From: Nesterenkonia sphaerica
GTDB lineage: Bacteria; Actinomycetota; Actinomycetes; Actinomycetales; Micrococcaceae
Direction: 5' to 3'
NCBI RefSeq assembly: GCF_005771565.1
Contig: NZ_VAWA01000012.1
Location: forward strand, 1 to 64,000
DNA: 64,000 nt
Made by a program: the position numbers and the translations under genes. Under the pieces are notes generated by a model, which had not been told where the DNA came from, did not search any database, and saw only the letters and a list, made by a program, of their open reading frames with translations. Position 1 is the stretch's first letter. Every line of letters begins with the position of its first letter. This document shows positions 28,034 through 31,921 of this stretch, piece by piece.

Positions 28034-29195
28034 ATGGCCGGAACAGGCGCACCGGAATGCATCAGCATTCGCGGTGCCAGGGAGAACAACCTCCGCGGTA
28101 TCAGCCTCGAGCTCCCAAAACGTCAGCTCACCGTGTTCACCGGGGTCTCCGGATCGGGCAAGTCCTCGCTGGTGTTCGGGACGATTGCCGCTGAGTCCCG
28201 CCGCCTGATCAACGAAACCTATGACGCCTTCATCCAGGGCTTCATGCCATCTGCCTCCAGGCCTGAGGCGGACTCGCTGGAGGGGCTGACCGCCGCGATT
28301 CTCATTGACCAGGAGCGGATGTCCCCCCACCCGCGATCCACGGTGGGAACTGCGACGGAGGTCAACTCCCTGCTGCGGATCCTCTTCAGCCGTTTCGCTC
28401 AGCCGCGGATCGGCTCACCGCAGGCCTACTCTTTCAATGTTGCCTCGGCCTCAGGCAGCGGGACCCTGACGCAGGCCGACGGCACCCAGCGCGCCGCCGG
28501 GTTCAGCGTCACCGGCGGGATGTGCATCCGCTGCGAGGGCAGGGGACACATCAATGACATAGACATCACCGAGCTGGTGGATGAGACCAAGTCACTCAAT
28601 GAAGGGGCCATCACCGTCCCCGGCTACAAAGCCGGTGGCTGGTCCGTCAGGTTCTACAGCGATTCGGGATTCTTCGACCCGGACAAACCCATCCGCGACT
28701 ACACCGAAGAGGAGCGGCACAACCTGTTCCACCGGCCGCCGGGCAAGGTGAAGATCTCCGGCGTCAATATGACGTTCCAGGGTCTGGTCCCCGCAGTCAA
28801 GAAGACGTACTTGTCCAAAGACCGGGATGGCATGCAGCCCCACATCCGCGCATTCGTCGACCGCGCCGTGGCATACACCCGGTGTCCGGACTGCCGCGGC
28901 ACACGCCTGTCCGACCAAGCCCTGGCCTCACGGATTGCGGGCCACAATATCGCCGGTCTGTGCGCCATGCAGATCAGCGATCTCGCCTCCTGGCTGGATG
29001 CACTTCAGCCCGAGGCTGAGGGCCTCCGGGGCGCCGAACCGCTGCTGAGAGCCTTGGCCGAGGGGCTGCGCAACTTCACTGCCGTGGGCCTGGGCTACCT
29101 GTCCCTGGATCGCTCCTCCGGCACGCTGTCCGGTGGAGAAGCCCAGCGTGTGAAGATGATCCGTCACCTCGGCTCCTCGCTGACAGACGTCACCT
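28034..29195 (+). pseudogene. UvrA-like ABC ATPase, 5' part (split by IS110 element)
   Basis: This is the N-terminal half of a UvrA paralog of the short, drug-resistance-associated type. The first Walker A is GVSGSGKSSLVFGT, a zinc-finger-like CIRCEGRGH and CPDCRGTRL follow, and the ABC signature is LSGGEAQRVKM. The frame then ends at a TAA created by the insertion, just before the first Walker B. The downstream piece 30717-31921 continues it: joined at 29195/30717 the sequence reads [19 protein letters not shown] without a lost or added base (788 aa). The gene starts 2 nt after the lactate permease stop. The product as interrupted lacks one complete nucleotide-binding domain. Confidence 0.93.
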
Positions 29196-29261
29196 AATGG
29201 GGATGTCGAGGGTCCGGTTTCCTCGATCTGTTGCTGGTGGGGTCCACTGAGATTTCACTGG

Positions 29262-29436
29262 CCCGGCTAGGCGAGATGATGGGTATGAGCCGCTGGCAGG
29301 TGTCCGCTCATCTTGATCACGCCGGCCCTTGAGAGGCCTCAACGTAGACGGTGGCCCCGCCAGTTACAGGGAACCTGACGGCTTGTGAGATGCTGCACCG
29401 CCAGAGTGCTCTCCATTAGGTTGCCGCTCGTTCCTC
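29262..29436 (+). ncRNA. Predicted bridge RNA of the IS110 element
   Basis: Folded by hand, the region gives a 5' hairpin (GGCT 29265-29268 / AGCC 29288-29291), then two loops of the same design. Loop 1 has outer stem CTGGC/GCCAG (29293-29297/29359-29363), inner stem CCG/CGG, and a GGCC/GGCC tip with 7-nt loop (29324-29338). Loop 2 has stems GGAAC/GTTCC (29370-29374/29430-29434) and CGGC/GCCG (29379-29382/29423-29426), and a GCAC/GTGC tip with 7-nt loop (29395-29409). After tip 2, UCUCCAUUAG (29410-29419) pairs over 10 nt (one G-U) with the element's left end CTAATGGGGA. After tip 1, AACGUAG (29341-29347) pairs with the target CTATGTT. These fit donor and target guides. The left guides match less well. 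About 175 nt is close to the known IS621 bridge RNA. Confidence 0.7.
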
Positions 29437-29469
29437 CGGGCTCGTCCAGGCCAGATGAGAGGAAGTTCC

Positions 29470-30693
29470 ATGGAAATCTATTGCGGAGTCGATTGGGCCG
29501 AGGCCCACCACGACGTCACAGTCATCGACCAGACCGGCAGGGTTTTGGCGCATCGGCGAATCAGCGCCGATGCCGCCGGTTTGAGGGTCCTGCTGGAATT
29601 GCTGGCTGAGCAGGCAGGCCAGGTACAGTCCGTGCCGGTGGCGATTGAGACAGAGAAGAATCTCATCGTCGTTGGCTTGCAGGCAGCTGGTGTGACCGTA
29701 TACGCGATCAACCCTCGTGCTTGTGCCCGCTATCGGGAGCGACACTCTCAGTCGGGCGGTAAGTCCGATCCTGGCGATGCGCTTGTACTGGCAAATATTC
29801 TGCGTACCGACGGTCACTTGCACCGGCCTTTGCCTGAGCTCTCCGATAGTGCCCGGGCAATCAAGGTGTTGGCGCGCCAGCACCAGGAGGCTATTTGGGC
29901 GATGCACCAAACCACCTCCAGGCTACGCTCGGTGTTGCTGGAATTTTATCCGCAGGCCCTTGAGGCGTTTCCGAACTTGCAACACCGTGCGGCGCTGACC
30001 TTCCTGGAGGCTTTTCCCTCACCCAGGCGCGCACGTCGACTGACGATGTCACGGACGGTCTCACTGCTACGCTCCAGCGGCCGCGGAAACCGTGCGGGCC
30101 TGGCTGAGAGGATCAGATCGACGCTCCGGGGTGCAGGGATCGAACAGCCTGAACCAGTTGAGGAGGCTTTGGCGCTTACGGCTCAGACGCTGGTTGGCAT
30201 TCTGCACCAGATGCATCAAGGCATCGCTCGACTTGAAGAAGCACTCGATACCGCATTCACAGCGCACCCCGCGTCTAAAACCATGCAGAATATTCCCGGA
30301 CTCGGTCCAGTGACCGGGGCACGGATACTAGCCGAGATCGGAGATGACCCGGACCGGTTCGCTTCGGCCTCGAGTCTGCGGGCCTACGCCGGCACCGCCC
30401 CGGTCACTCGGGCCTCAGGACGCTCACACTACGTCAAGGCACGGCGAGTGCGGAACAAACGGCTCGCTGACGCCTGCCACTGGTGGGCTTTTGCAAGCCT
30501 TACACACTCCCCAGGGGCAAGGGCGCACTATGATCGGCGCAGAGCCGCAGGTGATCACCACAACGCCGCGCTACGTCATCTTGCCAATAAACTCTTGGGC
30601 CGCCTGTGGTGGTGCCTGCGGCACAACATCAACTGGGACGAGTACGCTGCATGGCCCTCCGTTGAGCTGACCCCGGTGGAACTAGCAGCTTGA
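29470..30693 (+). CDS. IS110-family DEDD transposase (bridge-RNA-guided recombinase)
   Basis: This is a 407-aa recombinase. The RuvC-like N-terminal domain carries the acidic set Asp8 (GVDWA), Glu60 (VAIETE), Asp100 and Asp103 (KSDPGDA), at spacings like IS621. The C-terminal Tnp domain begins [18 protein letters not shown] and continues [18 protein letters not shown], which holds the Ser candidates for DNA attack. ATG 29470 has GAGAGGAAG just upstream; an earlier in-frame start at 29455 lacks one. The frame is intact, so the element may still be active. The stop codon overlaps the TTGACA box of the right end. Confidence 0.95.
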
Positions 30694-30716
30694 CACCTCA
30701 CTGGCGTGGGATGTCT
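30690..30716 (+). promoter_or_regulatory. Half promoter at IS right end; completed when element ends join
   Basis: TTGACA (30690-30695) is followed by 18 bp and then T plus the CT core. In a circular or tandem form the core is followed by AAT of the left end, giving TCTAAT, a 5/6 match to TATAAT. Transcription would run into the predicted bridge RNA. In the present insertion the -10 reads TCTATG, so the promoter is weakened but might still transcribe the 3' part of the uvrA-like gene. Confidence 0.65.
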
Positions 30717-31921
30717 ATGTTTTCGACGAGCCCACGATCGGCCTGCACCCCCACGACGTCGCACGGATGAACGATCTGCTGCTGAAGCTCCGTGACAAGG
30801 GCAATACCGTGCTGGTGGTTGAGCACGACCCGGACGTGATGGCCATCGCCGATCACATCGTTGACATGGGACCAGCTGCAGGAAACCAGGGTGGAGAAGT
30901 GGTCTACACCGGCAACTTCGCCGGGCTGCGGAGCTCGGGCACTGTGACGGGCGAACATCTCGACACGCGCCAGCCGATCAAGCGGCAGCCACGCGCCCCG
31001 GCAGGCTTCATTGCCGTCCGGGGTGCCGACACGAACAATCTCCGCGACGTCGATGTCGACATCCCGCAGGGTGTGCTCGTCGCCGTCACCGGGGTGGCAG
31101 GATCTGGCAAGAGCTCGCTCATTCACGGCTCACTGGCCCAGCGCAAGGACGTCGTGGCGGTGGACCAGGCTCCGATTCGCGGCTCCCGAAGGTCCAACCC
31201 GGCCACCTACACCGGGGTGCTGGAACCCATCCGCAAAGCATTCGCCAAGGCAAATGGAGTCAAGCCGGCCCTATTCAGCGCCAATTCGGAAGGGGCATGT
31301 CCGAACTGCAACGGCGCCGGGGTGATCTATCAGGACCTGGGCATCGTGGCCGGGATCTCCACCATGTGCGAGGAATGCCAGGGCAACCGTTTCCAATCCT
31401 CTGTTCTGAAGTACACCCTCGGCGGCGCGAACATCACCGACATCCTCGCCATGCCGGTGGTTGAAGCCCTGAGGTTCTTCAGCGGTCCGCATCCTGCGGC
31501 GAAACTGCCCGCCGCCGGCAGCATTCTGACCCGACTCCGCGACGTCGGGCTGGGATACCTGACCCTTGGTCAGCCACTGAGCACGCTGTCCGGCGGGGAG
31601 CGCCAACGTCTCAAACTCGCCATCGAAATTGGCTCGGATGCTGCGGTGCTGATCCTTGATGAGCCGACCTCCGGACTGCACATGGCCGATACTGCGCACC
31701 TGGTCGCCATGCTGGAGAGGATCGTCGAAGCCGGTCGCAGCGTGATCGTCATCGAGCACAACCTCGACGTGGTCGCCTGTGCTGACTGGGTGATTGACCT
31801 CGGCCCCGGTGCCGGTCACGAGGGCGGCCGGGTGATCTTCTCAGGACCGGCCCAGGCCCTGCTCAGCGCGGAGGAGTCGCTGACCGGACTCCACCTGCGC
31901 CAGCGCGAGTCGACGGGCTGA
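30717..31921 (+). pseudogene. UvrA-like ABC ATPase, 3' part (split by IS110 element)
   Basis: This is the C-terminal half of the interrupted UvrA paralog. It opens with the first Walker B region ([15 protein letters not shown]), then the second ABC domain: Walker [15 protein letters not shown], zinc-type CPNCNGAGV and CEECQGNRF, signature [11 protein letters not shown] and Walker [13 protein letters not shown]. An internal ATG at 30767 (MNDLLLKL) could start a separate polypeptide holding the whole second nucleotide-binding domain, but no clear ribosome site is seen. No other mutation is visible in this half, so the insertion looks recent. Confidence 0.92.

What the first reader, a model, noticed from the sequence alone, without database searches (positions are those of the whole stretch)
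29262..29436. Bridge RNA with readable donor and target guides in an IS110 element
Seen: the 5' non-coding end folds into two loops of equal design, each with a 4-bp tip stem and 7-nt tip loop. Right after the second tip, UCUCCAUUAG pairs over 10 nt (one G-U) with the element's left end CTAATGGGGA. Right after the first tip, AACGUAG pairs over 7 nt (one G-U) with the target CTATGTT found in the host gene. Known: IS110/IS621 recombinases use a ~177-nt bridge RNA with target loop first and donor loop second, and a CT core. The left guides match less well: GTGAGATG against GTGGGATG for the donor, and only a few bases for the target. The element may therefore tolerate left mismatches, or the landing site is not its best target. 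Inference: this is a programmable, possibly active system of an actinobacterial lineage.
Basis: partly seen in the sequence, partly recalled or inferred. Interest (0 to 1): 0.85.

Follow-up and report, generated by a model that had tools for sequence, protein, structure and literature searches.

The report
IS110 bridge RNA with duplicated target-loop half
A jumping gene in a Nesterenkonia-type bacterium carries a guide RNA that chooses where it lands; the true left guide lies just upstream of where it was first placed, the target-reading half is duplicated, and sister elements carry two or three target-reading loops in a row.

Summary
The element is real: an intact IS110-family element (29194-30714) in a uvrA-like gene that is unbroken in relatives, flanked by CT cores. 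Across 27 relatives the guide that follows the target is AGATTTCAC at 29250-29258 (0 of 5000 permutations as good); the inner sequence does not (105 of 1000). Two 5' arms (29234-29247, 29293-29307) covary with the same 3' arm (29351-29363), so the target-binding loop has a duplicated 5' half. This design is confined to one clade (100/100 support). Its sister clade (Streptomyces, Kitasatospora, Arthrobacter and others) carries two or three target-binding loops before one donor loop; the loop matching the element's own flanks is the first, second or third. In one element two loops each match a different natural target at 15 of 15 positions. The window clade mostly lands in IS3-family transposase genes. 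The bridge-RNA mechanism is known (2024); the duplicated half and loop arrays were not found in the literature held here. All of it is sequence evidence.

The parts
29194..30714 (+). Complete IS110-family element, 1521 bp including the left CT core; right CT core (30715-30716) left outside
   Evidence: Flanks join to an uninterrupted uvrA-like frame in Nesterenkonia relatives with the CT present once; same ends in relatives
29185..29193 (+). Left target (host DNA) AGACGTCAC, in the uvrA-like gene (codons D-V-T)
30715..30721 (+). Right target CTATGTT including the core CT
29205..29227 (+). 5' stem-loop of the bridge RNA
   Evidence: fold; equivalent hairpin visible in relatives
29234..29247 (+). 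Outer 5' arm of the target-binding loop, CTGGTGGGGTCCAC
   Evidence: pairs with 29351-29363; covariation, 0/500 shuffles as high
29250..29258 (+).
   Evidence: covaries with own left target, 0/5000 permutations
29293..29307 (+). Inner 5' arm, CTGGCAGGTGTCCGC, second copy; also complementary to 29351-29363
   Evidence: covariation with the 3' arm, 0/500 shuffles as high
29312..29323 (+).
   Evidence: does not significantly follow the target, 105/1000
29324..29338 (+). Tip hairpin GGCC-CTTGAGA-GGCC of the inner configuration
   Evidence: sequence
29341..29347 (+). Right target guide (RTG) AACGTAG
   Evidence: pairs with CTATGTT at 30715-30721; GTAG nearly invariant in the clade
29351..29363 (+). 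3' arm of the target-binding loop, shared by both 5' arms
29385..29392 (+). Left donor guide (LDG) GTGAGATG
   Evidence: 7 of 8 to right end 30706-30713; sequence
29395..29409 (+). Tip hairpin of the donor-binding loop
   Evidence: sequence; 4-bp stem kept with changes in relatives
29410..29419 (+). Right donor guide (RDG) TCTCCATTAG
   Evidence: complementary to 29194-29203
29470..30693 (+). IS110 recombinase, 407 aa, intact; D8, D100, D103 and S316 align with the IS621 catalytic residues
   Evidence: PF01548, PF02371, NF033542 above cut-offs; alignment to 8wt6
30706..30714 (+). Right end GTGGGATGT
   Evidence: same sequence in the relatives whose right end was held
28034..31921 (+). Interrupted uvrA-like gene (28034-29193 and 30715-31921)
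   Evidence: long uninterrupted frames (758-1084 aa) in 25 other genomes of the genus

Best explanation
An IS110-family element whose recombinase uses a bridge RNA made from its left end (about 29194-29440). The donor loop recognises the joined ends of the excised circle. The target loop recognises the landing site with LTG AGATTTCAC (29250-29258) on the left and RTG AACGTAG (29341-29347) on the right of a CT core, and the recombinase joins circle and target there. The target loop is unusual: its 5' half (arm plus left guide) is present twice, one inside the other, and both arms can pair with the single 3' arm. The outer half is in use; the inner half is an older unit kept inside the extended tip. 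In the sister clade the same locus carries two or three target loops in tandem before one donor loop, of which one matches the current landing site. Shown by sequence: ends, empty site, guide-target covariation, both pairings, clade distribution, tandem loops. Inferred: transcription, activity, whether the inner arm ever displaces the outer, and whether unused loops are used in other insertions.
For: Recombinase families and catalytic residues. Empty site. Outer LTG covaries with own target, 159 vs 138.4 +/- 3.4, 0/5000; without the three retargeted elements still 5/5000; inner 135.5 vs 131.8 +/- 2.7, 105/1000. L118 and L148 changed target and outer LTG together (CCCGTCCAC = CCCGTCCAC) while the inner segment stayed GTGATGRCAC. 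Both arms covary with one 3' arm (94.1% and 93.4% paired, 0/500 shuffles on three measures), with concerted changes of both arms in L145 and L044. One supported clade. Sister clade: own left flank found 8/8 in its left end in 48% of elements vs 1.4% with swapped flanks; 15/15 over both sides in 5 of 14. L158 holds two loops, one fitting its own target and one fitting the L163 target, each 15/15. Covariance model finds two or more loops per left end in most sister elements and one in single-loop relatives. 8 of 28 positive Streptomycetaceae genomes hold two loops 87-108 nt apart.
Against: No transcript or activity data. Related sequences inflate shuffle tests; most window-clade targets are one motif, so much of the power comes from a few retargeted elements. 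The inner arm's conservation could reflect pairing inside the tip rather than with the 3' arm. In about half the elements the inner arm has a mismatch to the 3' arm. The loop next to the donor loop never matched an own target in the sampled sister elements.
Confidence: 0.87

Rival explanations
1. One reading: a compact canonical bridge RNA at 29262-29436 with the left target guide between the inner arm and the first tip hairpin, and tolerated left mismatches.
For: Inner arm, tip and RTG form a canonical-sized target loop, as in the single-loop relatives; a few elements (L044, L047, L087) have inner segments that resemble the usual target well.
Against: Inner segment does not follow the target across the clade (105/1000) and stays put when the target changes; the stretch folds no better than shuffles; the outer arm wins the 3' arm in most of the 27 folds.
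Confidence: 0.06
2. A two-state RNA: both 5' halves are functional and compete for the single 3' half, so one element can use two left guides or switch between an active and an inactive form. (A refinement of the best explanation, not exclusive of it.)
For: Mutually exclusive helices both covary with the same 3' arm, with concerted changes in two lineages; two 5' arms kept over a clade spanning several actinobacterial families.
Against: Predicted folding strongly favours the outer arm; the inner guide has no matching natural target in the sample; single mismatches in many inner arms.
Confidence: 0.25
3. The extra target-loop units are debris: remnants of other IS110 left ends next to which the element landed, not part of the mobile unit.
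For: These elements do land in other IS elements, including the donor loop of a rival IS110 (L158).
Against: Extra loops lie between the true left end (matched to the RDG) and the gene, with one donor loop; the whole array aligns between elements at different sites; natural flanks match an outer loop.
Confidence: 0.05

Closest known systems
IS621 and its bridge RNA (Durrant et al. 2024, PMC11208160; Hiraizumi et al. 2024, PMC11208158)
   Same: DEDD/serine recombinase, bridge RNA in the left end, target loop then donor loop, left guides read the bottom strand and right guides the top strand, CT core
   Different: IS621 has one target loop; here its 5' half is duplicated, and sister elements have two or three target loops. 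The published mining kept about 205 nt upstream of the gene, which would cut off the outer half here and the outer loops in the sister clade
seekRNA of ISEc21 and other IS110/IS1111 elements (PMC11187229)
   Same: Programmable target choice by an RNA from the long non-coding region, upstream of the gene in IS110-type elements
   Different: A text search of the paper found no mention of tandem or additional guide loops
TIGR-Tas tandem guide arrays (PMC12045711)
   Same: Arrays of paired-guide stem-loop units read by a related RNA-binding domain
   Different: Those are processed guide RNAs for DNA targeting, not transposition; [quoted passage not shown]

Membership tests
IS110 family (IS110 group) | RuvC-like DEDD domain plus Transposase_20 domain with catalytic serine | tested here: met
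   PF01548 and PF02371 above cut-off; NF033542 190.7 bits vs 140; D8, D100, D103, S316 align with IS621
IS110 family (IS110 group) | Long non-coding region upstream of the gene carrying the bridge RNA (downstream in the IS1111 group) | tested here: met
   276 nt upstream, 21 nt between the stop codon and the right end
IS110 family (IS110 group) | CT core at both ends, no target duplication beyond it | tested here: met
   empty site in relatives has CT once; right core CT in all, left core first base varies
Bridge RNA | Target guides covary with the target | tested here: met
   left target guide, 0/5000 permutations; both sides in the sister clade
Bridge RNA | Donor guides covary with the element's own ends | tested here: inconclusive
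   guides and ends match in each element and differ between clades in step, by inspection only; no statistic computed
Bridge RNA | One target-binding loop followed by one donor-binding loop | tested here: not met
   duplicated 5' half in this clade, tandem target loops in the sister clade
Bridge RNA | RNA is transcribed, binds the recombinase and is required for recombination | not testable with these tools
   no transcript or biochemical data
Rfam families | Match to a described RNA family | tested here: not met
   no bridge-RNA match up to E 1

The most novel reading that the evidence does not exclude
Bridge RNAs of this IS110 lineage are multi-target: tandem target-binding loops share one donor loop and recombinase, so one element can be sent to several unrelated sites. 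New 5' loops retarget the element while older ones are kept, and in the window clade this has shrunk to two competing left halves sharing one right half.
Probability: 0.5. Interest if true: 0.85.

Novelty: new variant of a known kind. Interest (0 to 1): 0.68.

Why it matters
Bridge RNAs are described as a single pair of loops. An element family that carries several target loops on one RNA would show how IS110 elements change targets in nature (adding a loop rather than mutating guides) and would offer a natural template for multi-site bridge-RNA tools. The landing sites (conserved transposase codons of IS3 elements, or rival IS110 elements) suggest elements that live on other elements, which is testable with existing assays. 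It also warns that mining with fixed short flanks misses the functional left guide in such elements.

Tried and rejected
Rfam search for a bridge-RNA family: nothing useful. RNAalifold on the raw alignment picked the inner arm because the outer arm was gapped differently between groups; hand-aligned arms were used instead. Nested-remnant explanation of the tandem loops: disfavoured by whole-array alignments. Guide search in 7 loci fetched by RNA model only: 3 of 7 with an 8/8 left match vs 2.4% for swapped flanks, supportive but small. Right guides beyond the 4 nt next to the core do not follow the target well in the window clade. Literature searches for multiple target loops found none; preprints and most subscription journals are not held.

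Full report
What was checked. The finding places a bridge RNA at 29262-29436 in an IS110 element, with target guides around a first tip hairpin and donor guides around a second. The sequence contains both tip hairpins and the quoted pairings on the right side of each loop. The gene 29470-30693 encodes an intact IS110-type recombinase (PF01548 and PF02371; NF033542), and its D8, D100, D103 and S316 align with the catalytic residues of IS621 in 8wt6. Own genome: one copy of the RNA and one close copy of the protein.

Ends and empty site. Relatives in the same genus carry an uninterrupted uvrA-like frame across the site (26 of 30 genomes with the gene, own included), and their sequence reads GTCAC-CTATG or a close variant without the insert. 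The element is 29194-30714 with CT at both junctions and no other duplication. In relatives the right core is always CT; the first base of the left core varies (CT, GT, TT, AT), as expected if it comes from the target.

Relatives. Searches of genomes and plasmids gave 27 distinct elements, about 52-90% identical in the recombinase, with one or both ends readable. By translated flanks, nearly all of those examined lie in IS3-family transposase genes, at the codons D-(F/I/V/Y)-T-Y of the integrase core or P-S-T-Y-Y further upstream. The window copy, in a uvrA-like gene with D-V-T-Y-V codons, fits the same motif.

Where the left target guide is. The 9 nt at 29250-29258 follow the left target: 159 observed versus 138.4 +/- 3.4 for permuted targets, 0 of 5000; without the three retargeted elements 5 of 5000. 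Two elements at P-S-T-Y-Y sites (L118, L148) have this guide as CCCGTCCAC, identical to their target, and a third (L039) has CCAAGCAC against CCGAGCAC, while the inner segments of L118 and L148 stayed GTGATGRCAC. The inner segment, allowed the best of all offsets, gives 105 of 1000.

Two arms for one partner. Both 5' arms are complementary to the 3' arm 29351-29363. With hand-aligned arms, 94.1% of outer and 93.4% of inner cells are standard pairs, and no shuffle in 500 reaches the observed paired percentage, double changes or covariation for either. In L145 and L044 the 3' arm and both 5' arms changed together. Predicted ensembles favour the outer arm in nearly all of the 27 (mean expected pairs 12.7 outer, 0.5 inner). 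The simplest reading is a duplicated 5' half in which the outer copy does the work; that the inner copy is kept for a switch is possible but not shown. Shuffle tests overstate significance for related sequences, and an exchange between the two copies cannot be excluded.

Distribution. In a tree of 82 recombinases the double-arm elements fall in one clade with full support (the single unlabelled row, L150, is a contig-end copy nearly identical to L154). More distant relatives have a left end of about 235 nt with a single arm, and their single loop matches their own flanks above chance.

Sister clade. The sister clade (from Streptomyces, Kitasatospora, Arthrobacter, Paenarthrobacter and others) has left ends of about 300-670 nt. 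Left ends were set from the right donor guide, so the target guides could be tested without circularity. An exact 8-nt copy (wobbles counted half) of the own left flank occurs in the left end in 48% of 31 elements versus 1.4% with swapped flanks; over both sides 15/15 in 5 of 14. Comparing positions with the loops listed, the matching loop is the first (L163, L165, L168), second (L162) or third (L158). L158 also holds a loop that fits the target of a different element, L163, at 15/15. A covariance model from 16 loops, nearly all chosen for their match to the own target, finds two or three units per left end in most sister elements and one in single-loop relatives. In 150 Streptomycetaceae genomes 28 had a hit and 8 had two hits 87-108 nt apart. 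Whole arrays align between elements at different sites, with the first loop most variable in the L163/L190 pair. A further loop next to the donor loop is present in all 26 left ends examined but matched no own target.

Known versus new. The mechanism is that of IS621 (PMC11208160, PMC11208158) and the seekRNA work (PMC11187229). Those papers and the TIGR-Tas paper (PMC12045711) describe one target loop per RNA; tandem or half-duplicated target loops were not found in the held literature, which lacks preprints and most subscription journals. The published mining kept about 205 nt upstream of the gene, short of the outer half here (212-236 nt upstream). Everything here is sequence evidence; expression, recombination and use of the extra loops remain to be tested.

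Noticed in passing
L158 (NZ_CP109267.1 around 107 kb): The element sits inside the donor-binding loop of a rival IS110, in antisense; its third target loop fits that site exactly, so it may disable a competitor.
   Followed up: partly
L163 and L169, L174, L179, L182 (NZ_CP109328.1): Identical copies with identical flanks; the right flank reads like another IS110 transposase gene by eye, so they either target a repeated element or were copied with it.
   Followed up: no
L155 and L116 (NZ_CP032676.1, 388539-395482): In a Rhodococcus plasmid the bridge RNA and the recombinase gene are separated by sequence that encodes group II intron maturases.
   Followed up: no
L145, L149, L151, L153 (G797): Four near-identical copies at three different sites in one genome, one apparently outside an IS3 gene, which suggests recent movement.
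   Followed up: partly
L106:355-640: The outer arm has decayed while the inner arm fits the 3' arm well; the gene appears truncated.
   Followed up: no
window 30292-30372, minus strand: Below-threshold Rfam match (Ms_AS-4, 34.3 bits vs 50) antisense to the recombinase gene; probably chance.
   Followed up: no
Mycobacterium phage Feyre PP059644.1, 34244-35425: A phage carries a 46% identical relative of the recombinase.
   Followed up: no
window LDG 29385-29392 vs right end 30706-30713: The donor guide GTGAGATG and the end GTGGGATG differ at the same position in the clade members read, a conserved mismatch of unknown meaning.
   Followed up: no
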